64,000 nucleotides of DNA. Origin: Sinorhizobium glycinis. GTDB lineage: Bacteria > Pseudomonadota > Alphaproteobacteria > Rhizobiales > Rhizobiaceae. The position numbers and the translations under genes were made by a program. Below are positions 32,942-60,979 of this stretch, in pieces (positions within the stretch are counted from its first letter, which is position 1; each line of letters starts with the position of its first letter). The notes under the pieces are model-generated. The model searched no databases and had not been told where the DNA came from. It worked only from the letters and a program-made list of their open reading frames with translations. The stretch covers positions 682,001-746,000 of the forward strand of contig NZ_LPUX01000053.1 in NCBI RefSeq assembly GCF_001651865.1, read 5' to 3'.

Positions 32942-34003
<1,062 letters not shown>

Positions 34004-38395: not shown

Positions 38396-38437
38396 ACTTT
38401 ACTTCAATTTCATCGACCCGGCATTGCGTTGAATCAA
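38396..38437 (-). promoter_or_regulatory. Near-consensus FNR/FixK promoter of xfp
   Basis: TTGCGTTGAATCAA (38424-38437) matches TTGA-N6-TCAA with one mismatch. Reading on the minus strand towards xfp, TAAAGT (38401-38396) falls where a class II FNR promoter has its -10 element, placing transcription start near 38389, about 74 bases before the xfp ATG. Confidence 0.5.
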
Positions 38438-38703
38438 TGAGGCGCCCTTGTTCGGACATGAATCGCCCCACGCCTCCGGACCGCAAAGTGCGGCGTTGCA
38501 GATGCGGGGACTCGAAGATTGACGCCGGACAGCGAAGCTCGAACGCCCGGAGCACGTTCCATTCACCCGCCAACACAGCGGCAGAGCTGGAGATGTCGAG
38601 CGAAGACGCCGCTTCGCCTTGCTCATTGTCCCGACTGACGAAGAAGTGATGATCGCCCAGCATGCATTGGATTTGGCCGAGCGAAATTGAATTTCGCGTC
38701 CTG

Positions 38704-38745
38704 TTGATCGAAGTCAAAGCCAGCTCTGATCTCGACTGATATTCT
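38704..38745 (+). promoter_or_regulatory. FNR/FixK-type promoter of fba
   Basis: A perfect box TTGATCGAAGTCAA lies at 38704-38717, with TATTCT (38740-38745) as the -10. The implied start near 38752 puts the box centre at -41.5, the class II position, 16 bases before the fba ATG. The rest of the 452-base xfp/fba gap holds the xfp promoter and no gene. Confidence 0.7.
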
Positions 38746-38767
38746 TTCGAAGACCAGAGGATGTACG

Positions 38768-39787
38768 ATGAACCACGATCTGGGGAGCATCGCGGCGGCG
38801 CTAGTCGCAAAGGGAAAGGGCATTCTGGCGGCGGATGAAACCGTCCCCACTTTGACCAAGCGGTTCGACGCGCTGAAAATCCAGTCCACCGAGGAAAGCC
38901 GACGCACCTACCGTGAAATGCTCTTCGCGTCCGTAGGCGCGGCCGAGTTCATCAGCGGCGTCATCATGCACGATGAGACTATCCGCCAGAAGAGCTCCAG
39001 TGGGGTCTCGTTCGCTCAACTCCTCTCCGACCAGGGCATCCTTCCTGGCATCAAGGTCGATACCGGCGCAAAGCCTCTCGCCGGCTCTTTCGACGAGAAG
39101 ATCACTGAAGGGCTCGACGGGCTTCGAGATCGCCTCTCCGAGTACCGCAGTATGGGCGCCCGCTTCGCGAAGTGGCGTGCAGTTATTCGCATTGCGGACA
39201 ACCTGCCGAGTGCCGCGTGCGTCAGTGCCAACGCACACGCGCTCGGTCGATACGCCGCGCTTTGTCAGGAGCAGCATCTCGTGCCGATCGTCGAACCGGA
39301 GGTGTTGATGGACGGATCGCACACGATCGCCCGCTGCGAGGAGGTGACCGGCGTGGTCCTTCACGCGGTCTTCCGCGCCCTCTTCGAGCAGCGTGTCGTA
39401 CTGGAGTGCATGCTGCTCAAGCCCAACATGGTGATCGCGGGTGAAGAGTGCTCTCCTCCGGACAAGGTGAAGGAGGTTGCGGTTGCCACACTCCGCTGCT
39501 TGCGCCAGCACGTCCCCGCGGCGGTCCCCGGTATCGTGTTCCTGTCAGGCGGTCAGGACGACCTGGTGGCCACCGCCCACCTCAACGCCATCAACCGACT
39601 GCCCGGACCAAACCCCTGGAAGATCAGCTTTTCCTATGGGCGCGCCCTCCAGGATCCGGCGTTGAAGGCGTGGCATGGGCGCGATGAGAACCTGCAGCTG
39701 GGTCAGCAGGCTCTTTACCACCGGGCTCGCTGCAACGGGGCGGCCAGTCTCGGGGCATACACCGATGAGATGGAAGCGCTAGCCTAG
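38768..39787 (+). CDS. fba: Class I fructose-bisphosphate aldolase
   Basis: Cleaves fructose 1,6-bisphosphate through a Schiff base. Its 339 residues match the class I family: [24 protein letters not shown] at the start, [60 protein letters not shown], the catalytic-lysine segment [39 protein letters not shown] and [20 protein letters not shown]. It is first in a plus-strand series with the phosphatase, GH94 and marC genes and is divergent from xfp. An FNR/FixK-type promoter lies immediately upstream. Class I aldolase is a second isoform beyond the usual rhizobial class II enzyme. Confidence 0.94.
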
Positions 39788-39892
39788 GGCATCCGCCCCA
39801 TTGCGGCCAGCCGGGGCGACGAGGAATACCGTCGGTGCATCCTGGCGCCGGTCGGATGGGACGTTCAAACGTCCAAGCTGGGAGGGCTGGAC

Positions 39893-40462: not shown

Positions 40463-40614
40463 AACCCGGTGGAGCGCCGGGCGTTTCCGGCGAGCCGGAG
40501 ACCTTTTGCATGCTCGCATGGCTTTTGCGCCCTGCGGGCTCGAACAACGCCACATCTGCGCCGCTCTGGCGCGGGCGCCGTCGTCCAGCTTTGCGTTAAG
40601 GTGGGGAAACGCTG

Positions 40615-43600
40615 ATGTCAAAATCGGTCCTTGGCGCGTCTAAGGCGAGACAGAGTGGCCGTCCTGAGTTGCTAGGTCCGGGGCATGCCGTCGCTTTGCT
40701 CTCTAACGGTCGCTACAGCGTCATGATCACGGGCGCCGGTGCCGGTCGTGGCAGGTGGCGGGACCTTGACGTTACTCGGTGGCGGGAGGATCTGACACGA
40801 GATTGCTGGGGGCAGTTCTGCTACGTTCGAGATCTGGCAGACAACACGCTGTGGTCCATTGGAAGGCAACCAGTCTTCCGACCTGCAACCATCTACGAGC
40901 ACGCTTTTCATGGTGACAGGACCGAGTTCCGCTGTCGCGCCGAAGACATCGATATTTCCTGGAAAGTCTGCGTCCCACCGAATGCCGACGCGGAGGTGCG
41001 GGTGCTTACGGTCCTGAACCATGGCAAAAGGGAACGAAGCCTCGAATTCACCAGCTATTCCGAGGTGTGCCTGAACGATCGCCGCGCGGACCGGGCGCAC
41101 CCGGCATTTGCCAAGCTCTTCGTGGAGACAGACTACGATGATGTGACGGGCGCCCTGTTTGCGCGTCGCAGGCCGCGCCATGCAGAAGAAAGACCAGTCT
41201 GGGCGGTTCATGTTTCGTCGTCCAGCGAACAGGTCGGCGAGGTACTGGAGTATGAGACCGATCGATTGAGATTCCTTGGACGCGGCCGCACGCCGTCAAA
41301 TCCCGCAGCATTTGACGCAGGCACAGCGCTTTCCAGAACGACAGGTCCCGTTCTCGATCCGGTCTTCTGTCTGCGACGGACGGTGCATCTGGAGCCTGGC
41401 GCTACGGCGCGCGTGGCTTTCGTGACGGGAGCCGATGACGACGAATCGGCAGTCCGGGCAATCGCCAAGCAGTATTCGAGTATCGACGCGGTCGATGAGG
41501 CATTCGCTGCCGCGCTGGAGAGTCATCAAACCGAAGATCTGAAGCTGACTGCCGACGAGGTGGCCCTATTCAACCGGCTCGCTGGCTGTATCGTGTTTGC
41601 TAATCCGACCATGCGGCAGGCGGGTCCATTCAAGAAAAGCCGATTGGACCGAGCGGCTCTATGGGCTCACGGAATTTCGGGCGATCTTCCGATCGTGTTG
41701 GTTCGTATCGATAGCGACGGCGACAAGCCACTTGTTCGTGAGGTCACGATTGCGCACGACTTCAGCCGCCGCCGAGGTCTGCAATTCGACCTTGTCTTGT
41801 TCGATGAGCGGGGCGCCACCAGTACCAAGCGATTGATCACGAAACTGCAAGCCGGGTCGGAGGCCGACATGCTGGGCAAGCCAGGAGGAATCTTTGTCTT
41901 GTCAGCCGCCACCGCCTCGGACGATCAAGTGGAAACGATCGCCGCCGCCTCCCGCATCGTCCTGTCGAGTAGATCGGGTTCACTCGCCAAGCAGTTTGAT
42001 CGGCAAGACCCGGTTGAATCGCGTTCCTCACAGGCGCGGACGTCGCGAGCAAGCGACGTACTCAAGGAACCTGCATCCGCCCCAGTGAAGGATCTGCTGT
42101 TTTGGAACGGATTCGGAGGCTTCACCCTTGACGGGCGCGAATACGTCGTTGCGGTGGACGGGGTCAATTCGCAACCGTCGGCACTGCCCCCGGCTCCGTG
42201 GAGCAACGTCATCGCAAACCCGAGTTTCGGCTGCCTAACGACGGAAGCCGGACTTGGCTATTCCTGGGCCGGCAACAGCCAGATGAACCGGTTGACGCCT
42301 TGGTCGAACGACCCGGTTTCGGACACGCCTGGCGAGGTCGTCTACTTGCGGGACGAAGAGACCGGAGAGGTTTGGACTCCGACGCCCTTGCCACTCGGCG
42401 AGCGAACGTTCGTGACCGTTCGGCATGGCCAGGGCTACAGTCGTTATGAAAGCGACAGTCGAAAGCTCCATCAGACATTAACCGTGCATGTTCCGCCGAA
42501 TGATGAAATCAAGATCGTTCGTCTCGGATTGACCAACAGTGACTCCAAGAGTCGCCATCTATCGGCAACTTATTTCGTCGAGTGGGTTCTGGGGGTGCAC
42601 CGTGAAGACGCCGCGATGCAGATCGTCTGCGAACGCGATGCCGCTTCAGGAGCCATCGTGGCGTGGAATCCATGGGCCAACGACTTTGCTGGAAAACTGG
42701 CATTTGTGGCCGCCAATCCCGCTGCGAGTTCAGCCACGTCGGATCGCACGGGGTTTCTGGGCAAATACGGTACCGTTTTTCGGCCGGCAGCCCTGGAGCA
42801 CTCCGGTCTGGCGGAGAGTTTCGGCCCTCTGCAAGATCCCTGCGGTGCGTTGATGGTAGGTGTTTCGTTGGCGCCCGGCGAGAGCAAGGAGATTGTCTTC
42901 GTCCTTGGACAGGCTGCTGGGCTCGACGAGGTCCGCCGGCTTGTTCGCGAACATGCCGAATCCGGCCGTGCTCGTGAAAGCTTCGCCGTCATATCTCGTG
43001 AATGGGACGAAATTCTAAATGCGGTGCGGGTTTCAACGCCGGACATCGGCTTGAACTTGATGATGAATCGTTGGTTGTTGTACCAGGTGCTCGCTTGTCG
43101 CGTCTGGGCGCGCTCTGCCTTCTATCAGTCCGGAGGCGCGTTCGGCTTCAGGGATCAGCTCCAGGATGTGATGGCATTGGTCCACAGTGCGCCGAATGAG
43201 ACTCGTTCGCAGATTCTGCGGGCGGCCGGCCGCCAATTCACGGAGGGCGACGTCCAGCACTGGTGGCATCCTCCGTCCGGCGTCGGGGTGCGCACGCGCA
43301 TGACCGATGACCTGTATTTTCTGCCTTTCGTGGTTCACCACTATGTTTCGATTACTGGCGATGCCCACCTGCTTGATGAGCGGGTACCCTTCATCGCATC
43401 ACCACCACTGAAGGAGGATCAGGAAGAGGATTTCGGCGTTCCTGTACTCAGCGAAGGGGCCGGTACCGTCTACGAGCACTGCGTCCGGGCATTGGAGCAC
43501 GGGTTCCGGCTCGGCCGCCACGGCTTGCCGCTCATGGGAACCGGCGACTGGAACGATGGCATGAACAAGGTTGGAGCCGGCGGCAGAGGTGAAAGCGTTT

Positions 43601-44508
43601 GGAACGGCTGGTTCTTTTTGACGGTACTGAATTCATTTGCGATGACCGCATCTTCGCGCGGCGATGACGGCCGTGCCAAGTGGTGCCTAGAACGCGCCGA
43701 GGAACTGCGCGCTGCCCTGGAAGCACATGCTTGGGACGGCGCCTGGTATCGCCGCGCCTATTTTGACGACGGCACGCCTCTCGGTTCATCCTCCAACGAC
43801 GAATGCCAGATCGATGCCATTCCGCAGGCTTGGGCCGTCATCTCTGGCTTGGCCGACGAGGAGCGCGCGTCGAAGGCGATGAGCGCGGCCTATCAAAGGC
43901 TCGTGCGCCGGCAAGACAAGCTGATTCAGTTGTTCGACCCGCCGTTCGACAGGGGGTCCCTGCAGCCGGGCTACATCAAGGGCTATGTTCCCGGCATACG
44001 AGAAAATGGCGGACAGTATACCCATGCGGCCGCATGGTTCGTGCTCGCGTCGGCACTGCAAGGAGACGGCGATCGGGCCCTGGAGCTTTGGGGCCTGATC
44101 AATCCGATCAATCATGCTTCGACGAAGCGTGATGCCGAGCACTATATGGTCGAGCCTTATGTCGTCAGCGCCGACGTTTATGGTGCACCACCGCACACCG
44201 GACGTGGTGGCTGGACGTGGTACACCGGATCAGCCGCCTGGTTGTATCGAGTGGCACTGGAAGCCATCCTTGGACTGCGCCGACAAGACCAGACCCTGCG
44301 ATTTGAGCCCCGTGTTCCGGCAAGCTGGTCAGGTTATGAGTTGAGCTACAAGCATGGATCGGCGACATACCGCGTCCATTTCGATAATTCAAAAAGGGCA
44401 GGTCGGGGAGTGCGCTCCGTTACGTTGGACGGAACCGTCTTTGCTGACGGGATCGTACCACTTACTGACGACGGGCTGACGCACGATGTTCATGTCGTAA
44501 TTGGTTAG
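40615..44508 (+). CDS. GH94 family protein, NdvB C-terminal-like, without glycosyltransferase domain
   Basis: A 1297-residue protein resembling the C-terminal section of cyclic beta-1,2-glucan synthase (NdvB/Cgs) and stand-alone 1,2-beta-oligoglucan phosphorylases. It has an N-terminal beta-rich unit (GRYSVMITGAGAGRGRWRDLDVTRW, 30-54), a repeat of that unit near 490-560 (FWNGFGGFTLDGREYVV, PWSNVIANPSFGCLTTEAGLGYSWAGNSQ), then the alpha/alpha barrel: RSAFYQSGGAFGFRDQLQDVMAL, QHWWHPPSGVGVRTRMTDD, the catalytic GTGDWNDGMN (DWND at 978-981) and YVVSADVYGAPPHTGRGGWTWYTGSAAW. No GT84 domain, membrane helix or signal peptide is present. Likely reaction: phosphorolysis of beta-1,2-glucan to glucose 1-phosphate. 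Confidence 0.88.
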   Translation: MSKSVLGASKARQSGRPELLGPGHAVALLSNGRYSVMITGAGAGRGRWRDLDVTRWREDLTRDCWGQFCYVRDLADNTLWSIGRQPVFRPATIYEHAFHGDRTEFRCRAEDIDISWKVCVPPNADAEVRVLTVLNHGKRERSLEFTSYSEVCLNDRRADRAHPAFAKLFVETDYDDVTGALFARRRPRHAEERPVWAVHVSSSSEQVGEVLEYETDRLRFLGRGRTPSNPAAFDAGTALSRTTGPVLDPVFCLRRTVHLEPGATARVAFVTGADDDESAVRAIAKQYSSIDAVDEAFAAALESHQTEDLKLTADEVALFNRLAGCIVFANPTMRQAGPFKKSRLDRAALWAHGISGDLPIVLVRIDSDGDKPLVREVTIAHDFSRRRGLQFDLVLFDERGATSTKRLITKLQAGSEADMLGKPGGIFVLSAATASDDQVETIAAASRIVLSSRSGSLAKQFDRQDPVESRSSQARTSRASDVLKEPASAPVKDLLFWNGFGGFTLDGREYVVAVDGVNSQPSALPPAPWSNVIANPSFGCLTTEAGLGYSWAGNSQMNRLTPWSNDPVSDTPGEVVYLRDEETGEVWTPTPLPLGERTFVTVRHGQGYSRYESDSRKLHQTLTVHVPPNDEIKIVRLGLTNSDSKSRHLSATYFVEWVLGVHREDAAMQIVCERDAASGAIVAWNPWANDFAGKLAFVAANPAASSATSDRTGFLGKYGTVFRPAALEHSGLAESFGPLQDPCGALMVGVSLAPGESKEIVFVLGQAAGLDEVRRLVREHAESGRARESFAVISREWDEILNAVRVSTPDIGLNLMMNRWLLYQVLACRVWARSAFYQSGGAFGFRDQLQDVMALVHSAPNETRSQILRAAGRQFTEGDVQHWWHPPSGVGVRTRMTDDLYFLPFVVHHYVSITGDAHLLDERVPFIASPPLKEDQEEDFGVPVLSEGAGTVYEHCVRALEHGFRLGRHGLPLMGTGDWNDGMNKVGAGGRGESVWNGWFFLTVLNSFAMTASSRGDDGRAKWCLERAEELRAALEAHAWDGAWYRRAYFDDGTPLGSSSNDECQIDAIPQAWAVISGLADEERASKAMSAAYQRLVRRQDKLIQLFDPPFDRGSLQPGYIKGYVPGIRENGGQYTHAAAWFVLASALQGDGDRALELWGLINPINHASTKRDAEHYMVEPYVVSADVYGAPPHTGRGGWTWYTGSAAWLYRVALEAILGLRRQDQTLRFEPRVPASWSGYELSYKHGSATYRVHFDNSKRAGRGVRSVTLDGTVFADGIVPLTDDGLTHDVHVVIG

Positions 44509-47556: not shown

Positions 47557-47575
47557 GAGACCTTCCTGGCAATCA

Positions 47576-51708: not shown

Positions 51709-52163
51709 TCTCGCGCCTCATTTCTTTGCGGCAGAGATTCAAAGCAAGCCAGAATGTCGGATGCACGACACGCCCTGCGTTCAGAGATCCGCAAATTGAC
51801 CTGAACGACGCCGTCTCCCGCACGGTCCGCCTCCACCGCCCCCCGACTCTGGTGCTTGGAGATGCTACGCCGGCTGCGGCCGGGCGGCAGTAAGATACCG
51901 TAGCATACGCCATTCGACGTTCCCCGTCCGAGCGTCCCCTCACAGATACATCAACGAGGGGCGGGTCCGCGTCGAGCCTCCCGTCATTGCTGGTCACGCA
52001 CCGATATTGACGGCGATCAATGCCATCGGAGCACATTTTGCTTATCATTCTCCTTGAATAATCAAGGTGATCAGGAAGAGCAGTCTCAATTTTTCCTTGG
52101 GCGTTAAGCGCTTTCGCCACGGCCATGGGCTCACGGCGGCGTTCGGCAAAGAGGAGCGCAGAG
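51709..52163. other. Divergent intergenic region with regulatory sites
   Basis: 455 bases without a convincing gene between the AI-2E transporter gene and the operon at 52164. Open frames here have no codon bias or domain pattern. It contains the FixK-type promoter at 52007-52048 and a palindrome CCTTGA-N4-TCAAGG at 52052-52067 overlapping the predicted transcription start. Confidence 0.5.
52007..52048 (+). promoter_or_regulatory. FNR/FixK-type promoter of the 52164-56532 operon
   Basis: A perfect box TTGACGGCGATCAA at 52007-52020, with TATCAT (52043-52048) as the -10, gives a start near 52055 and a box centre at -41.5. This would produce a 109-base leader before the first ATG at 52164. Confidence 0.7.
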
Positions 52164-52661
52164 ATGGAAGAAGCGTTGCATCCCGCCGCAGTCGAGCACT
52201 TGCCGCCTTTTATAACCGCGCCGGGTCAGACGGACGTCCTGTTCAACGTAATGACCGTCTTCGTTCTGTTGATGATCTTCCTGGTCGGCATCCTTTACCT
52301 GCGGCTACACGCTTTGCCCGAGCACATGGCGCATGGCGCCAGCAAGGTGCAATTGCAGATCGTCGGCGCCTTGGGGCTGATCGCGCTCTTCACCCATAAT
52401 CATCTCTTCTGGATCGCCGCCCTGCTGCTCGCCATGATCGAATTCCCGGATTTTTCCTCCCCCGTCAGATCGATGGCCCGCTCTCTGGAGATGATTGCCG
52501 GCCGCGACAAGGTTGCAGAGGGGCAAGCACCACACGGGATCGAAGCAGAGTCGGAGGTATCGGCACCCCAACCGGGCATGCAGTCACCGGACGTACCGCA
52601 GTGGGTGCCGCTCGAAGTCGCGCCTGCGAAACGGGACGAGAAGGTGGAGCGGAGAGGCTGA
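52164..52661 (+). CDS. Small membrane protein, first gene of transporter operon
   Basis: A 165-residue protein with two or three membrane helices (DVLFNVMTVFVLLMIFLVGILYL, VQLQIVGALGLIALFTHNHLFWIAALLLAMIEF) and a proline- and glutamate-rich cytoplasmic tail of about 65 residues. I chose the ATG at 52164, with GAGGAG seven bases upstream, over an in-frame start at 52125. It ends four bases before the membrane-fusion gene, and the next two genes follow at short spacing. No family was recognised with certainty; comparable small proteins accompany DUF-type HlyD transport genes in proteobacteria. Confidence 0.75.
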   Translation: MEEALHPAAVEHLPPFITAPGQTDVLFNVMTVFVLLMIFLVGILYLRLHALPEHMAHGASKVQLQIVGALGLIALFTHNHLFWIAALLLAMIEFPDFSSPVRSMARSLEMIAGRDKVAEGQAPHGIEAESEVSAPQPGMQSPDVPQWVPLEVAPAKRDEKVERRG

Positions 52662-52665
52662 ACCC

Positions 52666-53895
52666 ATGCTGGAATTCCTGATTTGCTCACTGCTCACGAT
52701 CTTTCCGGACTTCCTCTTCCGCCGCTATGCGCAGGGCAAGCGCATCGGCCGCGAGATCAATCTCTATTCGATGTGGTTCGAACTGCGCTACGGAATCACC
52801 GCCTGCGTGATCCTGACCGTTTCTCTGATCACCCTGATTTTCTACTTTCACCCCTCTACGAAGAACGTCACGGCCGCATTCCGCACCGTGACGATCCTGC
52901 CGGAATCGACGGGTCGAGTGGCCGAGGTTTTCGTTGGCATCAACGAGAAGGTCGCAGCCGGCGCACCTATTTTCCGCCTCGACGATACGGAACAGAGGGC
53001 AGCCCTTGAAACCGCCCGGCGGCGCGTCGCGGAAATCGATGCCGAGAAAACGGTTGCGACGACCGAACTGGCGGCGGCTGACGGTTTGATCGCGCAGGCG
53101 GAGGGCGCCTACCAACAGGCTTTGGACGAGCTCGAGACGCAAGTCGAGCTCAATCGCCTCAATCCGAATGTAGTGGCAAGACGCGAAATCGAACGTCGCC
53201 AGGTGGCCGTGGATGCGCGCAAAGGAGCAGTCGCCGCCGCCGTTTCGAACAAGCAAACGCTGGAGACGAAAATCGGCTCGCTACTGCCCGCGCAGAGGGC
53301 CAGCGCCGAGGCTGCCCTTGCCCAAGCCCAGGTCGAGCTGGACAAGACGGTCGTGCGCGCCGGTACCGGCGGGATGGTCCAGCAATTCGCCCTGCGGCCC
53401 GGTGACATCGTCAACCCGATGATCCGCTCGGCCGGTATTCTGGTGCCCGACGATCGGCGCATAGGACTGGTTGCCGGTTTCGGCCAGATCGAGGCACAGG
53501 TGATGAAGCCCGGAATGATTGCCGAGGCGACCTGCGTCGGCAAGCCATTCACGATTATCCCACTGGTGGTCACCGAGGTTCAGGACGTCATCGCCGCCGG
53601 TCAGGTTCGGCCGACCGATCAGCTCGCTGACGTCCAACAGATGGCCCGGTCGGGAACGTTGACGACCATTCTGGAGCCGCTCTTCGAGGGCGAACTCTCC
53701 GGCGTGCCACCGGGAAGCAACTGCATCGCCAACGCCTACACGAGCAATCATGACGAGCTGCACTCACCGGACATAAGCACATGGCGCTGGTTCTTCCTGC
53801 ATATGGTGGATGCGGTGGCGTTGGTGCACGCGATGATTCTCAGGCTGCACGCGCTGCTCCTGCCGGTGCAGACGCTGGTTCTGACCGGACACTGA
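52666..53895 (+). CDS. HlyD-family membrane fusion protein
   Basis: A 409-residue periplasmic adaptor. One N-terminal helix (YGITACVILTVSLITLIFYF, about 44-63) precedes the biotinyl-lipoyl-like half motif TILPESTGRVAEVFVGINEKVAAGAPIFRLDD (about 75-110). A coiled-coil hairpin follows (AALETARRRVAEIDAEKTVATTELAAADGLIAQAEGAYQQALDELE to AEAALAQAQVELDKTVVRAGTGG) with the second lipoyl half. A final hydrophobic segment (FFLHMVDAVALVHAMILRLHALLLPVQTLVL) is unusual for the family. The ATG at 52666 sits four bases after the previous stop. Probably works with the small membrane protein; no outer-membrane partner is nearby. Confidence 0.87.
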   Translation: MLEFLICSLLTIFPDFLFRRYAQGKRIGREINLYSMWFELRYGITACVILTVSLITLIFYFHPSTKNVTAAFRTVTILPESTGRVAEVFVGINEKVAAGAPIFRLDDTEQRAALETARRRVAEIDAEKTVATTELAAADGLIAQAEGAYQQALDELETQVELNRLNPNVVARREIERRQVAVDARKGAVAAAVSNKQTLETKIGSLLPAQRASAEAALAQAQVELDKTVVRAGTGGMVQQFALRPGDIVNPMIRSAGILVPDDRRIGLVAGFGQIEAQVMKPGMIAEATCVGKPFTIIPLVVTEVQDVIAAGQVRPTDQLADVQQMARSGTLTTILEPLFEGELSGVPPGSNCIANAYTSNHDELHSPDISTWRWFFLHMVDAVALVHAMILRLHALLLPVQTLVLTGH

Positions 53896-53911
53896 TGCGG
53901 AGGCCGGCCGC

Positions 53912-55633
53912 ATGCGTCTGTCTCTCCCCCGACCAGCCCTCTTTGCAAACTTCAAGGCCTATCAGGCGAGTTGGCTGCGCAACGACTTCTCGGCCGGTCT
54001 CGCCATAGCGGCCGTCGGGCTGCCTAGCGCGATCGCCTATCCCGCTATCGCGGGCCTTCCCCCCGAGTCGGGACTATACGCCAGCATCACGCCGCTGGTG
54101 GCCTACGCGTTCTTCGGCCCGTCGCGGCAGCTCATTGTCGGACCCGATGCGGCGACGATGACCATACTCGCCGCGGTGTTGATGACGGTGTTCGCCACGC
54201 CGGGCGTAACAACGGACCGCGTGACGGCGGCAGCACTGCTGGCACTCGTCGTCGGAATTCTGTGTCTCATTGCCCGCGCCGTGCGGCTGGGGGTGCTCGC
54301 AACCTTTCTCTCTCGCCCGATTCTGACAGGTTTCTTCGCCGGCATTTCCCTTTCCATCCTGATCGGACAGATCAAACGGTTCACGGGCGTTGACATTCAG
54401 TCGGAGGGTCTTGTCGGGCCTGTCGTCGAGCTCGTGAAGGAAGCCGGATCGATCCATTGGCCCTCCTTGGTACTTGCCATGGGATGCTTCGCACTGCTGC
54501 AGGTGGCTCGCGCGCTCAACTCCCCCGTTCCCGGACCAGTGATCGTCGTCGTGATCTCCGTGTTCCTTTCATTCCTCTTCGATTTCGAAGGACGCGGCAT
54601 AGCGGTCGTCGGCAGCATCCCGGAAGGTCTGCCGTCGATCGCATTGCCTCGAATGGGAGACCTTCCTTACGAATCAATGCTCGTCGGCGGAGCTGCAATT
54701 TTTCTTGTCAGTTTCGGCTCCGGGGTCATCGCCGCCCGTAGCTTCGGGTCGCTCGGCGGGTATCGGGTCGATCCGAACCGCGAGCTCACCGGGTTCGGCG
54801 CTGCAAACGTGGCTGCCGGGCTCTTCGGGACATTTCCCGTAACGGCCTCCGACTCGCGAACGGCCGTAAACTTCGCCGTCGGTGGCCGCTCGCAGGTCGC
54901 AAGTCTCGTGGCGGCGGGAACCCTGATCGCGGTCCTGCTGTTTCTTGGCAACGTCCTGCGCATCCTGCCGATCCCGGCACTTGGTGCCATCCTGGCTGCA
55001 ACGGCCCTCAGCCTGATCGATCTGGCGGCGCTGAAGCAGATCTGGCGTGTCAACCGCATGGAGTTCGCATTTGCGCTGATTGCTATGTGGGGACCGATTG
55101 GACTGGGTGTTCTCAATGGCGTGGTAATCGCGATTGCCGCTACGCTGGTCTATATCCTGATCCAGAGCATGTATCCGCACGACGCGCTGCTCGGGCGCAT
55201 TCCCGGCCGCGACGGGTTCTACAAGCTGCATCGCGAAGCTGAGGCGCGCGCAGTCCCGGGCTTCGGCGCCTGTATGATCCAGGGCAGCCTGTTATTCTTC
55301 AATACCGATTATATCCAGACGCGCCTGACCTCCATCGCGGAGGGACTGCCGGCACAGACCCGCTGGCTGGTGATAGATGCAAGCGCAATTCCGCAGATTG
55401 ACAGCACCGCGGCAGCCATGATCGAGGAAGTGTACGAGGAGCTCAAGAAGCGCGGAATCGCACTTGGATTGGCGGAATTGCACACCGATGCGCGCGCCCT
55501 GCTCGATCGCGCCGGCGTCATCGGCAAAATCGGGCCCGCAATGATCTTCGAGGGAATGGAGGACGCCCTCCTCGCCTTCGAGGCTGGACATGGGGGCGCC
55601 GCCCGTTTAGCGGGCGCCGGGCCGCAGAAATAA
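53912..55633 (+). CDS. SulP family anion permease with STAS domain
   Basis: A 573-residue inner-membrane anion transporter or channel (sulfate, bicarbonate or related). The SulP core is clear: DFSAGLAIAAVGLPSAIAYPAIAGLPPESGLYASITPLVAYAFFGPSRQLIVGPDAATMTILAAVL, then FLSRPILTGFFAGISLSILIGQIKRFTG and GTFPVTASDSRTAVNF. The C-terminal STAS domain (about 440-565) includes TRWLVIDASAIPQIDSTAAAMIEEVYEELKKRGIALGLAEL. It begins 16 bases after the membrane-fusion gene and is followed 41 bases later by ppk2. Substrate unproven; bicarbonate uptake would fit carboxylating or fermentative metabolism, but that is speculative. Confidence 0.92.
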   Translation: MRLSLPRPALFANFKAYQASWLRNDFSAGLAIAAVGLPSAIAYPAIAGLPPESGLYASITPLVAYAFFGPSRQLIVGPDAATMTILAAVLMTVFATPGVTTDRVTAAALLALVVGILCLIARAVRLGVLATFLSRPILTGFFAGISLSILIGQIKRFTGVDIQSEGLVGPVVELVKEAGSIHWPSLVLAMGCFALLQVARALNSPVPGPVIVVVISVFLSFLFDFEGRGIAVVGSIPEGLPSIALPRMGDLPYESMLVGGAAIFLVSFGSGVIAARSFGSLGGYRVDPNRELTGFGAANVAAGLFGTFPVTASDSRTAVNFAVGGRSQVASLVAAGTLIAVLLFLGNVLRILPIPALGAILAATALSLIDLAALKQIWRVNRMEFAFALIAMWGPIGLGVLNGVVIAIAATLVYILIQSMYPHDALLGRIPGRDGFYKLHREAEARAVPGFGACMIQGSLLFFNTDYIQTRLTSIAEGLPAQTRWLVIDASAIPQIDSTAAAMIEEVYEELKKRGIALGLAELHTDARALLDRAGVIGKIGPAMIFEGMEDALLAFEAGHGGAARLAGAGPQK

Positions 55634-55674
55634 CGTCCGATCGAGACAGTGAAGCCAGAGGAGTGGAGGGTAGC

Positions 55675-56532
55675 ATGGGCAAGCACAAGGAAAACATAAA
55701 GAGAAACAACCACTGGAACACGCAAGGCAGCGAGCTCGACGAGACGCAAGAGCCCGACCGGCGGTCGAATGGTGATTACGGCAAGGAGCTCGCCCGACTA
55801 CAGGAGGAGATCGCCCATCTGCAGGCCTGGGTGAAAAAGACCGGAGCCCGCATCGTCATCGTTTTCGAAGGGCGCGACGCCGCCGGCAAAGGCGGCGTGA
55901 TCAAGCGGATCACCGAGCGCGTCAGCCCGCGCGTTTTCCGCGTCGTTGCCCTGCCGGCGCCGACGGACAGGGAGAAGACACAGATCTACATGCAGCGCTA
56001 CATCCAGCAACTCCCGGCTGCCGGCGAAGTCGTGATCTTCGACCGTTCGTGGTACAACCGACCCGGCGTGGAGCGCGTCATGGGCTTCTGCAGCGAGGAA
56101 AAGGCCCAGCGTTTCCTTGAGCTCGCACCGCGCTTCGAGGCTGCGATGATCGAAAGCGGCATCGTACTGCTAAAATACTTTCTCGACGTCAGCGAGGAAG
56201 AACAGGAACGTCGTTTTCGCCAACGCATCGACGATCCGCTACGCCAATGGAAGCTCTCCCCGATGGACATCGAATCCTATCGACGCTGGTGGGATTATAC
56301 ACGCGCCTATAACGACATGATCCGCATGACCGACACCGACTATGCGCCCTGGTGGATCGTGCCGTCGAACGACAAAAAGCGCGCCCGCATCAACTGCATC
56401 TCGCATATTCTGTCCTCGATTCCTTATGAACGGGTGAAGTTCGAGGAGCCGGAGCTCGGCAAGCGCCAAAAGCGGCCCGATGACTTCGTCGAAGACACGC
56501 GAATCCGCCGCACGGTGCCGAACGTGTATTGA
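55675..56532 (+). CDS. ppk2: Polyphosphate kinase 2
   Basis: Transfers phosphate between polyphosphate and nucleotides, favouring NTP formation from polyphosphate. The 285-residue product has the PPK2 P-loop fold: Walker A IVFEGRDAAGKGGVIKRI (about 61-78), the lid-like ALPAPTDREKTQIYMQRYIQQLP and Walker B region VVIFDRSWYNRPGVERVMGF, followed by DPLRQWKLSPMDIESYRRWWDYTRAYNDM and WWIVPSNDKKRARINCISHIL. This is the one-domain class I architecture. I prefer ATG 55675 over GTG 55663. Last gene of the operon starting at 52164. Useful for ATP supply when respiration is limited. Confidence 0.94.
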   Translation: MGKHKENIKRNNHWNTQGSELDETQEPDRRSNGDYGKELARLQEEIAHLQAWVKKTGARIVIVFEGRDAAGKGGVIKRITERVSPRVFRVVALPAPTDREKTQIYMQRYIQQLPAAGEVVIFDRSWYNRPGVERVMGFCSEEKAQRFLELAPRFEAAMIESGIVLLKYFLDVSEEEQERRFRQRIDDPLRQWKLSPMDIESYRRWWDYTRAYNDMIRMTDTDYAPWWIVPSNDKKRARINCISHILSSIPYERVKFEEPELGKRQKRPDDFVEDTRIRRTVPNVY

Positions 56533-56742: not shown

Positions 56743-57213
56743 TCAGGCCTTGTCCGGAGCCCAGTTCAGGAAGAGGCCGACGTCGCCAGGCATTCCGCCG
56801 GGAAAGTTGATGATCATCGCCTTCAACTTGTATCCCTGCGGCTTCCCATAGGTTTGATAACGCTCGAAAAATTCCTTGGCCTTGCCCTGCAGCGTTGACG
56901 GCCAGTCGCGATCGCCGCTGTTGATCGCCCGTCCGCTGTCGGTGCAGAGCTCGGAAGGGAAGCTGTAGACCATCGCCTCGAACTTGCCCGCCTTTACGGC
57001 ATTGGCGACGAGGCGGCGCACCATAGCGATCTCTTCTTCCGTCACGTGCTTCTTCAAGAAATCGGCAGCGAAGTCGGCGTGTTTCTGCTCCTCGATCGTC
57101 TTGAGCTTCCGCTCCCTTTCCATTTCCTCCATTTCCCGCTCGAGAACCTGCTTGCGAAGGTCTTCCGCGCTCGGAGGTGCTGCGCCTGCATCAATGTTCT
57201 TATGGTCCGACAT
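56743..57213 (-). CDS. Conserved hypothetical protein
   Basis: A 156-residue soluble protein of unknown function. It begins with a charged, probably coiled-coil segment (EDLRKQVLEREMEEMERERKLKTIEEQKHADFAADFLKKH, about 17-56), then a globular part with VTEEEIAMVRRLVANAVKAGKFEAMVYSFPSELCTDSGRAINSGDRDWPSTLQGKAKEFFERYQTYGKPQGYKLKAMIINFPGGMPGDVGLFLNW. The pattern FPSELCTDxGRAINN and KPQGYKLKAMIINFPGG recurs in alphaproteobacterial proteins of no known function. It stands alone on the minus strand, with a one-mismatch FixK box 112 bases upstream. The 210 bases downstream to 56533 hold no gene. Confidence 0.75.
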   Translation of the reverse strand: MSDHKNIDAGAAPPSAEDLRKQVLEREMEEMERERKLKTIEEQKHADFAADFLKKHVTEEEIAMVRRLVANAVKAGKFEAMVYSFPSELCTDSGRAINSGDRDWPSTLQGKAKEFFERYQTYGKPQGYKLKAMIINFPGGMPGDVGLFLNWAPDKA

Positions 57214-57296
57214 TGCTTTGCTCCACTTCGGGCACAGTGCTGTCGTAGCGGCGGTGCGCGTTCGATCGAATTCGGACCGGCTCGCCCGCGCCCATA

Positions 57297-57338
57297 ACTC
57301 TAGAAACGGACATGGGGCATGTCATTGATTTGGAACAA
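57297..57338 (-). promoter_or_regulatory. Near-consensus FNR/FixK promoter of the 57213 gene
   Basis: TTGATTTGGAACAA (57325-57338) has one mismatch to TTGA-N6-TCAA. On the minus strand TAGAGT (57302-57297) stands at the class II -10 position, giving a start near 57290, 77 bases before the ATG at 57213. Confidence 0.45.
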
Positions 57339-57510: not shown

Positions 57511-57552
57511 TTGATCGCGATCAACGACTTGCAGCCTTGGTTGCGAGAGAAT
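57511..57552 (+). promoter_or_regulatory. FNR/FixK-type promoter of the DUF3300-DUF2950 genes
   Basis: TTGATCGCGATCAA (57511-57524) is a fully symmetric box. GAGAAT (57547-57552) lies at the class II -10 position, so transcription would start near 57559 and leave a 155-base leader. The 500-base gap from 57214 to 57713 otherwise holds only the minus-strand promoter and no gene. Confidence 0.6.
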
Positions 57553-57713
57553 TCGAGCAGCGATGGTTGCCTTTTCACTGTTGGGAACCGCAACGGCAAT
57601 GGCCCGCGATCGAATATTGCGAAAGCGTCGACACTAATTCGGTCCGCGATGCGAGCATGGTCGCACCGGATCCTCGATCATTCTCAAAGCTGAGACACTC
57701 CCCGGGGGAGAAA

Positions 57714-59084
57714 ATGGACAAGAAGCGGACCCTCATGCTTCGCTATGCCGCGGCAGTAGCGCTGACGCTCCTTACTCCGAACGGTCTTGCGCAGGCCCAA
57801 CAGAAGGATATCCCACCGCCCGTGGCTGCCGAGGCGGCGCCCGAGCCGCTCAACGACGACGAACTCGAGGTCCTGGTCGCCCGCATCGCTCTCTATCCGG
57901 ACGAGCTGGTGGCACTCGTCTCGGCCGCCTCGCTCTATCCCTTGCAGATCATAGAGGCGGAGCGGTTTCTCGAGGCCCGCAAGAAGAAGCCCGAGCTGAA
58001 ACCGAAGGAAAGCTGGGACGGCAGCATCATCTCGCTCTTGAACTATCCCGAGATCGTCAAGATGATGAGCGAGGACCTCGAATGGACGCAGGCCTTCGGC
58101 GAGGCGATCGCCAATCAGCAGAAGGACGTTTTGATCGCCATCCAGCAACTGCGCGACGAGGCGGTGGCCAAGGACATCATCGAGACCGACGACAAGATCA
58201 AGGTGGTCGAGGAGGGTGACAACATCATCATCCAGTCGGCGAACCCGGAAGTCATCTACGTGCCGCAGTATCCGCCGGAGATGCTTTACGAGCCGGACTA
58301 CGCGCCGGTGCCGATCGATTACTATGACGACCCCTATCCCGCCTACTGGTATCCGGGCGCGGCCTTCTTCGCCGGCGCCGTCACCGGCGCGATCTTCGGC
58401 GCCATCGTCGACTGGGACGATTGGGGCGTGTGGGGTGGCCGCTGGGACGGCGACATCGATGTCGACTGCAACAAGTGCTTCAACGACATCGACTTCGACG
58501 GCAAGGTCAACTTCAACGACATCGACTGGAAGAATGTCGACCGCAGCAAGATCAGCTTCGACCGCGATCAGCTCCAGAAATTCGACCGGTCGAACATCAA
58601 GAACAACATCAAGGCCAGGGGCGACAACAACCTGCGCAACCGCGCCGCCGCGATCAATCGGGATCGGCCGCAAGCGCGACCGGGCGGCGGGGGCGGTGAG
58701 CTCAAGGATGTGCGCAAGAGCACACTCGAGGGCCTGAAGGCCCAACCGAGACGCGAAGCCGCGGCACGGCCCGGCGGCCGGACGGCGGCGAAGGCAAAGG
58801 CTGGCGGCGGCAAGCCGAGCGTCAACCGTCCAAAGGGCCAGAAGTCTTCGGTCAACCGGCCGGCCGGCAAGAAGAAGATGGCGGCGAAGGCGCAGAACCG
58901 GCCCAAAAAGCCCTCGGGCCTCGGCAACGTCAACACCGGCCGGCGCGAGGTGGCCTCGTCGCGGCGCGGCGGCCACAGCATGGGCGGCGGCCATCGTGGC
59001 GGCGGACGGCCGCAGATGAGCCGCGGCGGTGGCAGACCGCCGATGGCGCGCGGCGGCGGCCGCGGTGGCGGGCGCAGACGGTGA
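57714..59084 (+). CDS. DUF3300 exported protein with Gly/Arg-rich tail
   Basis: A 456-residue exported protein of unknown function. The signal peptide (MDKKRTLMLRYAAAVALTLLTPNGLAQA) is followed by a DUF3300 domain (about 45-215): DDELEVLVARIALYPDELVALVSAASLYPLQIIEAERFL, SWDGSIISLLNYPEIVKMMSEDLEWTQAFGEAIANQQKDVLIAIQQLR and NPEVIYVPQYPPEMLYEPDY. Next come a glycine/alanine hydrophobic patch, an Asp/Asn-rich section (DIDVDCNKCFNDIDFDG), and a basic tail ending in RGGG repeats. The ATG at 57714 is preceded by GGGGGAG. It is followed by a DUF2950 gene, a pairing known across proteobacteria. Confidence 0.88.
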   Translation: MDKKRTLMLRYAAAVALTLLTPNGLAQAQQKDIPPPVAAEAAPEPLNDDELEVLVARIALYPDELVALVSAASLYPLQIIEAERFLEARKKKPELKPKESWDGSIISLLNYPEIVKMMSEDLEWTQAFGEAIANQQKDVLIAIQQLRDEAVAKDIIETDDKIKVVEEGDNIIIQSANPEVIYVPQYPPEMLYEPDYAPVPIDYYDDPYPAYWYPGAAFFAGAVTGAIFGAIVDWDDWGVWGGRWDGDIDVDCNKCFNDIDFDGKVNFNDIDWKNVDRSKISFDRDQLQKFDRSNIKNNIKARGDNNLRNRAAAINRDRPQARPGGGGGELKDVRKSTLEGLKAQPRREAAARPGGRTAAKAKAGGGKPSVNRPKGQKSSVNRPAGKKKMAAKAQNRPKKPSGLGNVNTGRREVASSRRGGHSMGGGHRGGGRPQMSRGGGRPPMARGGGRGGGRRR

Positions 59085-59101
59085 GGGAGGGGAGCACGAC
59101 G

Positions 59102-60049
59102 ATGACCAGGCTTTTGCACGGACTGCTGCTCGGATCGGTCCTCTCGCTTGCGCTCGCCATTGCACCGGGCGATGCCGCGCTTGCGCAGGCACAGCCGCCG
59201 GACATCGATGACTATGCCGCGGCCGACGACCCGCCCGCCTTCGACGATCCGGCCAAGGCGGTGGAGGCCTTCAAGGAGCGGCTTGCCGCCAATGATTTCG
59301 AGGGCCTTGCAAAACTGCTGGGGCTCGACGCAGCGAAACTGAAGGGCGGCGAAGGGGCGATGGAGACCTTTGCAATTATTCGTGAAGGGGCGGCCCGCAA
59401 CGTCCGCATGCGCGACCTCGAGGGTCGCAAGATCATCGAGATCGGCGACCGGCTCTGGCCCATGCCGTTCCCGATCGTCAAGGGCGAGGACGGCAAATGG
59501 GCCTTCGACACCTATGTCGGGCTCGAGGAAGTTCTCAACCGACGCGTCGGCGAGAACGAACTCGAGGCGATCGAGACGGTACGCGCCTATGTCGAGGCGC
59601 AGAAGGACTATGCGGCTCAGGACCGCGATGCGGACGGCGTCCTTGAATATGCCCGGAAGCTGATCAGCAGTCCCGGGCAGACCGACGGCCTCTACTGGCC
59701 GCCGGACCAGGGGGACGGCGAGAGCCCCGTCGGCGATGCCATCAGCGAGGCGGCCTTGGAAAAGGCCAAAGCGGGCGAGGGCTATTTCGGTTACCGGTTC
59801 CGTATTCTGACTTCGCAGGGCGACAACATCGCCGGCGGCCAGTACGACTATGTCATCAACGAAAACATGATCGGCGGCTACGCCCTGATCGCCTGGCCGG
59901 TCCAATATGCCGAAACGGGCGTCAAGACCTTCGTCGTCAACCAGCACGGCATCGTCTACGAACGGGACCTCGGTTCTAGCACCGAGGCGATCGTGCCCTT
60001 CATCGACCGCTTCGATCCGGACGACAAGTGGAGCGTGGTGCCCGACTGA
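59102..60049 (+). CDS. DUF2950 exported protein
   Basis: A 315-residue exported protein of unknown function. The signal peptide is MTRLLHGLLLGSVLSLALAIAPGDAALAQ. The mature part has FDDPAKAVEAFKERLAANDFEGLAKLLG, GRKIIEIGDRLWPMPFPIVKGEDGKWAFDTYVGLEEVLNRRVGENELEAIETVRAYVEAQKDYAAQDRDADGVLEYARKLISSPGQTDGLYWP and GYFGYRFRILTSQGDNIAGGQYDYVINENMIGGYALIAWPVQYAETGVKTFVVNQHGIVYERDLG, which define DUF2950. The ATG at 59102 has GGGAGGGGAG before it and lies 17 bases after the DUF3300 stop, so the two are cotranscribed and probably act together in the envelope. Confidence 0.88.
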   Translation: MTRLLHGLLLGSVLSLALAIAPGDAALAQAQPPDIDDYAAADDPPAFDDPAKAVEAFKERLAANDFEGLAKLLGLDAAKLKGGEGAMETFAIIREGAARNVRMRDLEGRKIIEIGDRLWPMPFPIVKGEDGKWAFDTYVGLEEVLNRRVGENELEAIETVRAYVEAQKDYAAQDRDADGVLEYARKLISSPGQTDGLYWPPDQGDGESPVGDAISEAALEKAKAGEGYFGYRFRILTSQGDNIAGGQYDYVINENMIGGYALIAWPVQYAETGVKTFVVNQHGIVYERDLGSSTEAIVPFIDRFDPDDKWSVVPD

Positions 60050-60144
60050 GTACCGTCGGGAAGTAGGCGCGCTACCCGGATCGATGAAGAGCGCGGCTTC
60101 TCGCGTCAAGACGGTTCGCCGCTCGGCTCCGCATAGGCGAAACA

Positions 60145-60660
60145 ATGGCACTTGAGATCGAGCGCAAGTTTCAGGTCCTGGACGATCGGTGGCGGAAGTA
60201 CGCCACTACTGGCTCCGAACTGCGGCAGGCCTATCTCATCGCGACGACAAACAGAATGTTGCGCGTGAGGATTATCGATGCGGAGCGGGCGACTTTGACG
60301 TTCAAGTTCCGAAGAGACCATATGAGACGCGAGGAGTATGAATATACGATACCATATTCCGACGCGCTGCAGATGTTCGAGTTCGCGCTGGGTATCGTCG
60401 AGAAGACTCGATACCAGGTTCGCTATGCTGATTATCTCTGGCATATCGACGTCTATTCCGGCACGAATGATGGCCTGGTGATCGCTGAAGTGGAATTGCG
60501 CAACCCTTGGGAAGATCCACCGCACCCGAAATGGATCGGCGGGGAGATCACCGGAAATCCGCTGTACTCAAATCGCACCCTGGCAATGAAAGGCCGCGCG
60601 GCAACTCAAATGCCATTCTCGCCCTCGCCTGTTGGACGGGTGGACCCACCAAGAAGGTGA
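60145..60660 (+). CDS. CYTH domain protein (inorganic triphosphatase-like)
   Basis: A 171-residue triphosphate tunnel metalloenzyme. The CYTH hallmark ExExK is at the N-terminus (ALEIERKFQV), followed by alternating charged beta strands: RMLRVRIIDAERATLTFKFRR, REEYEYTIPYSDALQMFE, KTRYQVRYADYLWHIDVYSG and VIAEVELRNPWEDPPHPKWIGGEITGNPLYSNRTLA. Related single-domain proteins hydrolyse tripolyphosphate. The tail after about residue 150 looks unrelated (SPSPVGRVDPPRR) and may be a readthrough of a shifted end. The neighbouring ppk2 gene makes short-chain polyphosphate a sensible substrate. Confidence 0.9.
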   Translation: MALEIERKFQVLDDRWRKYATTGSELRQAYLIATTNRMLRVRIIDAERATLTFKFRRDHMRREEYEYTIPYSDALQMFEFALGIVEKTRYQVRYADYLWHIDVYSGTNDGLVIAEVELRNPWEDPPHPKWIGGEITGNPLYSNRTLAMKGRAATQMPFSPSPVGRVDPPRR

Positions 60661-60979
60661 ATCCAAGTCGCGGTGTTGGGTGTCCTCGACAGTCAGCGTG
60701 AGGTGGCTGCAATCCCGTAGTCTGTTGTCGACCCAGAGCAGAGCAAGGTGCGGGATATTTGTGCAGCCTCGCGGTCGAGAAGGAGAGCGGCCTTTTGAGG
60801 CGTGGCACCATGCCTCAAGTACATGCGTGCGGCATAAGACTCCATTGCGTTTTCCGCAGCCTCGTACTCAGCGGCTCGGGAGCCACCTGGTTTGACGATG
60901 ATCAATGCTCGACATGCACTGTTGCTGTATATGCGATCAGAGATTGGGACCGACCTTCGTTCAAGCCGAGGAGTAGGCA
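60661..60979. other. Intergenic region upstream of DUF3141 gene
   Basis: 319 bases with no convincing gene; open frames on either strand lack domain patterns and ribosome sites. It ends with the FixK-type promoter at 60892-60933 and the ribosome site GAGGAG before the ATG at 60980. Confidence 0.5.
60892..60933 (+). promoter_or_regulatory. FNR/FixK-type promoter of the DUF3141-phosphate acetyltransferase genes
   Basis: A perfect box TTGACGATGATCAA at 60892-60905, with TATATG (60928-60933) as the -10, places the start near 60940 with the box centre at -41.5, 40 bases before the ATG. This is the most complete of the six predicted promoters. Confidence 0.72.

What the first reader, a model, noticed from the sequence alone, without database searches (positions are those of the whole stretch)
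38396..60933. Six class II FNR/FixK-type promoters define a low-oxygen regulon across 22 kb
Perfect TTGA-N6-TCAA boxes occur at 38704, 52007, 57511 and 60892, and one-mismatch boxes at 38424 and 57325. All lie in intergenic DNA before genes. Each has a -10-like hexamer at exactly the distance that centres the box at -41.5: TATTCT 38740, TATCAT 52043, GAGAAT 57547, TATATG 60928, and on the minus strand TAAAGT 38401 and TAGAGT 57302. The coincidence of box, position and spacing is much stronger than any site alone. It would put xfp, fba (and perhaps the phosphatase and GH94 genes behind it), the transporter-ppk2 operon, DUF3300/DUF2950, DUF3141-pta and a hypothetical gene under one regulator.
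Basis: partly seen in the sequence, partly recalled or inferred. Interest (0 to 1): 0.88.

Follow-up and report, generated by a model that had tools for sequence, protein, structure and literature searches.

The report
Low-oxygen switch sites beside energy genes
In a Sinorhizobium-like soil bacterium, several energy-metabolism and unknown genes carry the standard DNA switch that rhizobia use to turn genes on at low oxygen; the switch type is well known, but some of the genes behind it were not known to carry it.

Summary
Four perfect TTGA-N6-TCAA boxes lie where stated, each with a -10-like hexamer exactly 22 nt downstream and a gene behind it. The flanks of all 131 perfect boxes of the held genome were compared: the 22-nt signature occurs in 5 of 5 boxes of this region (four in the window, one 3.4 kb beyond it) but in 3 of 69 scattered boxes. 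These are FixK/FNR-type class II promoters. They do not define a regulon of their own: 57 of the 131 boxes lie in two 80-kb clusters on other contigs, with cytochrome-oxidase fix genes and two more xfp copies; this region is the third, smallest group. The DUF3141-pta-ackA-fabI box is conserved: 12 of 13 Sinorhizobium/Ensifer and 27 of 27 Bradyrhizobium loci. Phosphoketolase under FixK is already published. The fba site lacks comparative support; the transporter-PPK2 and DUF3300 sites and the two one-mismatch sites have partial support. Control by the 47576 regulator is unproven: four FixK-type proteins with the same recognition helix were found. Newer point: DUF3300/DUF2950, induced in symbiosis and without a known role, stand behind such a promoter here. 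Ordinary in kind, useful in detail.

The parts
38704..38717 (+). Perfect FixK/FNR-type box, class II promoter of fba (-10 TATTCT 38740-38745, predicted start 38752)
   Evidence: no comparative support: 0 of 58 non-own fba upstream regions, of which only L062 (87%) is close
38768..39787 (+). Class I fructose-bisphosphate aldolase (fba)
   Evidence: Pfam PF00274
39893..40462 (+). Histidine-phosphatase family gene, possibly cotranscribed with fba
   Evidence: Pfam PF00300; same strand, 105-bp gap
40615..44508 (+). GH94 glycoside phosphorylase-type gene, possibly cotranscribed with fba
   Evidence: Pfam PF06165, PF17167; fba and GH94 relatives also neighbour each other on one strand in L062
38424..38437 (-). 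One-mismatch box TTGATTCAACGCAA, probable promoter of xfp (-10 TAAAGT at 38396-38401)
   Evidence: same TTGA-N6-GCAA form as the box published for B. diazoefficiens bll2518; 0 of 7 non-own xfp upstream regions have a perfect box
35850..38258 (-). Phosphoketolase (xfp)
   Evidence: Pfam PF09364, PF03894, PF09363
52007..52020 (+). Perfect box, class II promoter of the transporter-PPK2 operon (-10 TATCAT 52043-52048, predicted start 52055)
   Evidence: perfect box upstream of relatives of the first ORF in 5 of 43 non-own regions, four of them Bradyrhizobium, none with 4 of 6 at 22 nt
52125..56532 (+). Small ORF (52125-52661), HlyD-like adaptor (to 53895, likely start near 52663), SulP-family transporter (53912-55633), PPK2 (55663-56532)
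57325..57338 (-). One-mismatch box TTGTTCCAAATCAA, possible promoter of the 156-aa gene (-10 TAGAGT at 57297-57302)
   Evidence: perfect boxes upstream of its relatives in 6 of 22 non-own regions, none with 4 of 6 at 22 nt
56743..57213 (-). 156-aa protein without a family match, next to PPK2 in several relatives
57511..57524 (+). Perfect box, class II promoter of DUF3300-DUF2950 (-10 GAGAAT 57547-57552, predicted start 57559)
   Evidence: perfect box in same-genus L142 and before the DUF3300 match in 5 of 8 named loci; absent in 22 of 23 non-own loci of the family search
57714..60049 (+). DUF3300 gene (57714-59084) and DUF2950 gene (59081-60049)
   Evidence: Pfam PF11737, PF11453
60892..60905 (+). 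Perfect box, class II promoter of DUF3141-pta-ackA-fabI (-10 TATATG 60928-60933, predicted start 60940)
   Evidence: conserved in 47 of 80 loci, 12 of 13 Sinorhizobium/Ensifer and 27 of 27 Bradyrhizobium
60980..64000 (+). DUF3141 gene (60980-63181) and pta (from 63208, runs off the window); ackA and fabI-like genes follow outside the window
   Evidence: Pfam PF11339, PF01515, PF00871, PF13561
47576..48220 (-). FixK-like CRP/FNR-family regulator; candidate, not shown to act here

Best explanation
The four perfect sites are class II promoters activated by a FixK-type CRP/FNR protein when oxygen is low. The dimer binds TTGAY-N4-RTCAA centred at about -41.5, overlapping the -35 region, and recruits RNA polymerase to a -10 element 22 nt downstream. 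They put fba, the transporter-PPK2 operon, DUF3300-DUF2950 and DUF3141-pta-ackA-fabI into the genome's FixK-type regulon; xfp and the 156-aa gene are probable weaker members. The likely oxygen input is a FixL-FixJ pair acting on FixK (C67:67402), shown here only by domains and gene neighbourhood. The likely use is substrate-level or stored-phosphate ATP supply when respiration is limited: phosphoketolase makes acetyl phosphate, acetate kinase makes ATP, Pta links to acetyl-CoA, PPK2 uses polyphosphate. Shown: sites, spacing, clustering, conservation of the DUF3141 box, gene content. Inferred: binding, activation, oxygen response, physiology.
For: At 22 nt a -10-like hexamer in 5 of 5 boxes of the group, 19 of 57 in C66 plus C67, 3 of 69 elsewhere (Fisher 3.5e-6 for 5 of 5 against 3 of 69). 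At 21 or 22 nt, 32 of 57 against 7 of 69 (2.4e-8). Inner positions fit TTGAY-N4-RTCAA in 5 of 5 against 18 of 69. Boxes stand before known FixK-type targets in C67: COX1/fixN type with fixO, fixG, hemN, Hsp20. DUF3141 box conserved in 47 of 80 loci against 0-3 for 11 permuted half-sites. Two other xfp copies stand in CBS-xfp units behind boxes with TATGCT at 22 nt; three sister Sinorhizobium have CBS-ADH-xfp behind a perfect box with TATCGT or TATCAT at 22 nt. FixK2 dependence of B. diazoefficiens phosphoketolase and acetate kinase (PMC9104804 Table 2).
Against: No transcript start, binding or expression data for this strain. The 22-nt spacing was first noticed in the window, so 4 of the 5 are not independent. 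The GAGAAT of the DUF3300 site is weak. Boxes before relatives of DUF3300, the small ORF and the 156-aa gene reach at most 3 of 6 at 21 or 22 nt, and most relatives of DUF3300 in the family search have no box (22 of 23). 32 of 40 DUF3141 loci outside Sinorhizobium/Ensifer and Bradyrhizobium have no perfect box within 160 nt. No perfect box within 450 nt upstream of fba (0 of 58), xfp (0 of 7), the adaptor (0 of 43), DUF2950 (0 of 29) or GH94 (0 of 8) in non-own loci. An earlier table for B. diazoefficiens lists phosphoketolase as microoxia-induced but not as a FixK2 target (PMC6515984 Table 2).
Confidence: 0.8

Rival explanations
1. The local FixK-like protein at 47576, perhaps with the Cache-domain cyclase gene next to it, is the dedicated regulator of this group, and answers to a signal other than oxygen.
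For: It lies inside the group, has the same GLTIETVSR helix as the C67 FixK, is 46% identical to it, and the next gene encodes a Cache-guanylate/adenylate cyclase protein.
Against: No box within 350 nt upstream of its gene; only two relatives of it were found near DUF3141 in the 80 loci (L077, L100) although the DUF3141 box is conserved in 47 of them; its cyclic-nucleotide pocket was not tested.
Confidence: 0.12
2. Another regulator of the same DNA specificity (the C66 FixK-like pair, or a nitric-oxide-responsive DNR-type protein) is the physiological activator.
For: C66:126283 and C66:135958 have the same ETVSR helix; FNR, FixK and DNR recognise virtually identical sites (PMC2908626 passages).
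Against: They sit far from the group; no test here separates them from C67 FixK.
Confidence: 0.25
3. Chance: the boxes and hexamers are coincidences chosen after the fact from a 64-kb window.
For: 4 boxes within 22.2 kb occur somewhere in 18% of random placements; one-mismatch boxes are at chance level; the fba site is unsupported.
Against: Spacing result (5 of 5 against 3 of 69, with the independent C66 and C67 sets peaking at 21-22 nt) and conservation upstream of DUF3141.
Confidence: 0.03

Closest known systems
FixK2 regulon of Bradyrhizobium diazoefficiens (PMC9104804, section 33 with Table 2 read; PMC6515984, passages)
   Same: TTGA-N6-TCAA-type boxes before phosphoketolase-acetate kinase, CBS, Hsp20, hemN and other genes; bll2518 (box TTGACCTCACGCAA at -89) and bll2517 fall about 10-fold without fixK2
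   Different: Different species and gene order. Table 2 does not list DUF3141, pta, PPK2, DUF3300 or DUF2950 by those names. PMC6515984 Table 2 lists bll2518 as microoxia-induced but marks it minus under FixK2 targets
Computed core and extended FNR/FixK/DNR regulons of alpha-proteobacteria (PMC2908626, passages)
   Same: Phosphoketolase, an HlyD-type protein, a CBS protein, Hsp20 and a zinc alcohol dehydrogenase are in the FixK list
   Different: pta, polyphosphate and acetate kinase terms are not in the main text
Rhodopseudomonas palustris TIE-1 FixK (PMC3050613, passages)
   Same: FixK boxes, one class II promoter mapped, and a phosphoketolase among putative targets, about 9-fold lower in the fixK mutant in one condition
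   Different: In the other five values listed for that gene the change is small or opposite; the mapped box is at -44.5
FnrN/FixK regulon reconstruction in Rhizobiales (PMC4999443, section 24)
   Same: Complex FnrN/FixK networks in Rhizobiales; a poly-beta-hydroxybutyrate polymerase gene (phbC) named as a possible target, which might be the DUF3141 gene, since DUF3141 is called poly-beta-hydroxybutyrate polymerase in PMC11878206 (passages)
   Different: That identity is not established here
blr3456-blr3459 operon of B. diazoefficiens (PMC10888616, passages)
   Same: A hypothetical protein followed by pta (blr3457) and ackA (blr3458); gene order like DUF3141-pta-ackA
   Different: Described as raised in a phaR mutant with PhaR motifs; a FixK2 box is not mentioned in the main text. 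That blr3456 is the DUF3141 gene is my inference

Membership tests
FixK/FNR-dependent class II promoter | TTGA-N6-TCAA box | tested here: met
   Four perfect boxes; two more with one mismatch
FixK/FNR-dependent class II promoter | Box centred near -41.5, with a -10 element 21-22 nt behind it | tested here: met
   By sequence only: 5 of 5 in the group, 3 of 69 elsewhere at 22 nt
FixK/FNR-dependent class II promoter | Mapped transcription start and activation | not testable with these tools
   No transcript data
FixK/FNR-dependent class II promoter | A regulator of matching DNA specificity in the genome | tested here: met
   Four proteins with ETVSR helix among the 9 best of 31 HTH_Crp_2 matches; that this helix reads TTGA is recalled
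FixK subfamily, for the 47576 protein | CRP/FNR fold with FNR-like helix but without the full set of four iron-sulfur cysteines (definition in PMC2908626 passage) | tested here: met
   Cysteines only at 103 and 213; Pfam HTH_Crp_2 and cNMP_binding
FixK equivalog (NCBIfam NF050806), for the 47576 protein | Score above the curated cut-off | tested here: not met
   155.1 bits against a cut-off of 300; best of 7 models all the same
FixLJ-controlled FixK, for the 47576 protein | Gene next to fixLJ | tested here: not met
   Sensor-kinase and LuxR-type response-regulator genes lie beside C67:67402; control at a distance was not tested
FNR (iron-sulfur), for the 47576 protein | Four cluster cysteines | tested here: not met
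   Two cysteines, neither near the N-terminus

The most novel reading that the evidence does not exclude
The symbiosis-induced DUF3300-DUF2950 pair and the DUF3141-pta-ackA-fabI operon belong to a FixK-driven emergency-energy programme (phosphoketolase, acetate kinase, polyphosphate) in rhizobia, rather than to a set of dedicated plant-interaction effectors; and in this genome the group can also be driven by a local FixK paralogue paired with a Cache-sensor cyclase, so that one set of class II promoters reads two signals.
Probability: 0.2. Interest if true: 0.5.

Novelty: new member of a known kind. Interest (0 to 1): 0.36.

Why it matters
It gives single-nucleotide predictions for where transcription starts. 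It offers a simple reason why DUF3300 and DUF2950, singled out in 2015 as induced in symbiosis, always adjacent and without a clue to function from their neighbourhood (PMC4653623, passages), would rise in nodules: low oxygen acting through a FixK-type protein. And it extends the published phosphoketolase-acetate kinase branch of the FixK regulon to DUF3141-pta-ackA-fabI, with a box conserved from Sinorhizobium to Bradyrhizobium, and possibly to PPK2.

Tried and rejected
Density as evidence: rejected, since 4 boxes in 22.2 kb arise somewhere in 18% of random placements. One-mismatch boxes as a class: rejected; kept for xfp and the 156-aa gene as partly supported. fba footprint by family and order searches: no relative above 62% appeared in the rows shown, so that test is nearly empty; the only close one is L062 (87%), without a box within 450 nt. 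A copy of the tRNA-Gln end as a sign of island insertion: no exact repeat of 13 bases or more of 32857-32960 elsewhere in the window. FNR proper as the regulator: no match to NCBIfam NF008365 over its cut-off (7 matches), but that cut-off was passed in only 1 of 14 control genomes, so it is strict and does not by itself exclude an FnrN; of 31 HTH_Crp_2 matches I read 9. Broader DUF3300 footprinting failed.

Novelty searches: (open-licence PubMed Central only). In what I saw of the papers (passages, and the sections named) none names DUF3141, DUF3300, DUF2950 or PPK2 as FixK targets; the FixK2 microarray paper cited there (Mesa et al. 2008) I did not see.
Full report
CHECK OF THE OBSERVATION. 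The four perfect boxes are at 38704, 52007, 57511 and 60892 (shuffle mean 0.60, none of 100 with 4). The -10-like hexamers are at the stated places, 22 nt behind each box, which centres the boxes at -41.5 if transcription starts 7 nt behind the hexamer. The two one-mismatch sites exist too, with TAAAGT and TAGAGT, but one-mismatch boxes as a class are not above chance (20 found with at most one mismatch, 13.4 expected).

GENOME-WIDE TEST. The held genome (6.04 Mb, 68 contigs; the window is C53:682001-746000) has 131 perfect boxes; the pattern read backwards has 29. I listed all 131 and read the flanks of all 131. Thirty-six lie in C66:92-174 kb, 21 in C67:26-106 kb, 5 in C53:720-750 kb (four in the window and one at C53:749436, window coordinate 67436), and 69 elsewhere. 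A hexamer with at least 4 of 6 matches to TATAAT at 22 nt, in either orientation, is found in 5 of 5 boxes of the C53 group, 19 of 57 in C66 plus C67, and 3 of 69 elsewhere. At 21 or 22 nt: 5 of 5, 32 of 57, 7 of 69. The next highest spacing is 6 of 36 (30 nt) in C66, 3 of 21 (25 nt) in C67, 2 of 5 (32 nt) in C53 and 6 of 69 (33 nt) in the rest. Fisher tests: 3.5e-6 for C53 against the rest at 22 nt; 2.4e-8 for C66 plus C67 against the rest at 21 or 22 nt. Density alone is weaker: 18% of random placements give 4 boxes in 22.2 kb and 2.6% give 5 in 28.7 kb.

WHAT THE LARGE CLUSTERS ARE. In C67 a CRP/FNR regulator gene, a LuxR-type response-regulator gene and a PAS sensor-kinase gene lie side by side; I read them as fixK, fixJ and fixL from domains and order. 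Behind boxes in C67 stand genes for COX1 (fixN type) with FixO, FixG, HemN, Hsp20 and a zinc alcohol dehydrogenase. C66 holds P-type ATPases, an NDP-forming acyl-CoA synthetase-like protein, ornithine carbamoyltransferase, a universal stress protein and others. Each contig has a further xfp (67.8% identical to the window's) behind a CBS-BON gene and a box with TATGCT at 22 nt. So the window's group is a satellite of a large FixK-type regulon.

COMPARATIVE TEST. The organism is a Sinorhizobium/Ensifer relative (nearest DUF3141: 87% in S. shofinae). In 80 named loci with a DUF3141 relative, 47 have a perfect box within 160 nt upstream: 12 of 13 Sinorhizobium/Ensifer (the thirteenth, L033, has one mismatch), 27 of 27 Bradyrhizobium, 8 of 40 others. 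Eleven permuted half-sites give 0 in ten cases and 3 in one. These loci are related and not independent trials. Of 54 boxes within 450 nt upstream, 26 have at least 4 of 6 at 21 or 22 nt, and no other spacing from 14 to 33 has more than 4; the closest Sinorhizobium copies have TATGTG or TATTTG, 3 of 6, at 22 nt. In S. psoraleae, Sinorhizobium sp. 8-89 and S. americanum (L034, L035, L037) CBS, ADH and xfp genes, with GH94 next, run away from DUF3141 from their own perfect box with TATCGT or TATCAT at 22 nt (CBS and ADH named by Pfam in L034).

The other sites fare less well. DUF3300: a perfect box in one same-genus genome (L142), but in 1 of 23 non-own loci of the family search; among 8 named loci with a DUF3300 match 5, all Bradyrhizobium, have a box 211-231 nt before the matched stretch, with at most 3 of 6 at 21 or 22 nt. 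The small ORF that heads the transporter-PPK2 operon: 5 of 43 non-own upstream regions, four Bradyrhizobium; the 156-aa gene: 6 of 22; the AI-2E-type gene divergent from box 52007: 7 of 15; PPK2 itself: 3 of 16; pta: 5 of 73; fba 0 of 58 (nearly all distant); xfp 0 of 7; adaptor 0 of 43; DUF2950 0 of 29; GH94 0 of 8. For xfp a looser motif TTG[AC]-N6-[GT]CAA occurs in 3 of 7 non-own regions, one of them, L034, with a 4-of-6 hexamer at 21 nt.

REGULATOR. The protein at 47576-48220 is FixK-like: helix GLTIETVSR, cysteines only at 103 and 213, so not FNR; it scores 155 bits on NCBIfam FixK, below the cut-off of 300. Of 31 HTH_Crp_2 matches in the genome (15 over the cut-off) I read the best 9; four have an ETVSR helix: C67:67402, the window protein, C66:126283 and C66:135958. 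No match to the NCBIfam Fnr model passes its strict cut-off. Sequence cannot say which of the four acts here. FixLJ-FixK is the best guess because it is the one with a sensor pair beside it.

WHAT IS KNOWN. In B. diazoefficiens bll2518 (phosphoketolase) and bll2517 (acetate kinase) fall about 10-fold without FixK2, with a box TTGACCTCACGCAA, the same TTGA-N6-GCAA form as the window's xfp site TTGATTCAACGCAA (PMC9104804, section 33 read). Against this, PMC6515984 Table 2 lists bll2518 as microoxia-induced (fold change 8.2) but with a minus under FixK2 targets (passages). A Rhodopseudomonas palustris phosphoketolase is about 9-fold lower in a fixK mutant in one condition and little changed or higher in the others (PMC3050613, passages). 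Phosphoketolase, an HlyD-type protein, a CBS protein and Hsp20 are in a computed FixK regulon (PMC2908626, passages). B. diazoefficiens pta (blr3457) and ackA (blr3458) are raised in a phaR mutant, with PhaR motifs before blr3456 (PMC10888616, passages); that blr3456 is the DUF3141 gene is my inference from gene order. DUF2950 and DUF3300 were flagged as induced in two RNA-seq studies of symbiosis and always adjacent, with no hint of function from their neighbourhood (PMC4653623, passages).

JUDGEMENT. A real set of FixK-type class II promoters; ordinary in kind; new in some targets. Support is highest for DUF3141-pta, moderate for the transporter-PPK2 operon and DUF3300-DUF2950 (good promoters here, patchy in relatives), fair for fba (one genome), fair for xfp (degenerate site, but the gene is FixK-linked in several relatives and in two other copies here), lower for the 156-aa gene. 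Binding, activation and oxygen response are inferred.

Noticed in passing
L029:12222-13436 (C53:748222-749436, outside the window): A sodium/calcium exchanger-type gene with a perfect box at its upstream end and CATACT at 22 nt is the fifth member of the group; its first possible start overlaps the box, so the true start is probably further downstream.
   Followed up: partly
32857-57213: A tRNA-Gln gene (32857-32930) marks the edge of a block whose genes have lower third-position GC (about 0.70 against 0.82 around), beginning with a lactate/malate dehydrogenase gene (32963-34003); it may be an acquired island, but no repeated tRNA end was found in the window.
   Followed up: partly
C66:92-174 kb and C67:26-106 kb of the same genome: 57 of the genome's 131 perfect boxes lie in these two stretches, which share several gene pairs at 70-90% identity, among them xfp with its CBS gene.
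   Followed up: partly
C64:441799, 442869, 442989 (and 466667) of the same genome: The exact palindrome TTGACAGCTGTCAA occurs three times within 1.2 kb, and TTGACGGCTGTCAA 24 kb on; none has a 4-of-6 hexamer at 21 or 22 nt, so it may be the operator of another regulator.
   Followed up: no
45658-47634: A protein with Cache and class III cyclase domains is encoded next to the FixK-like gene on the same strand.
   Followed up: no
60145-60660: A CYTH-domain (triphosphatase-type) gene lies between DUF2950 and DUF3141 in a region with PPK2 and, at 30996-32573, a Ppx/GppA-family gene: several polyphosphate-related genes together.
   Followed up: no
C64:469254-470552 and C50:415423-416655 of the same genome: Near-identical second copies of DUF3300 (96%) and of the transporter adaptor (87%) lie on other contigs.
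   Followed up: no
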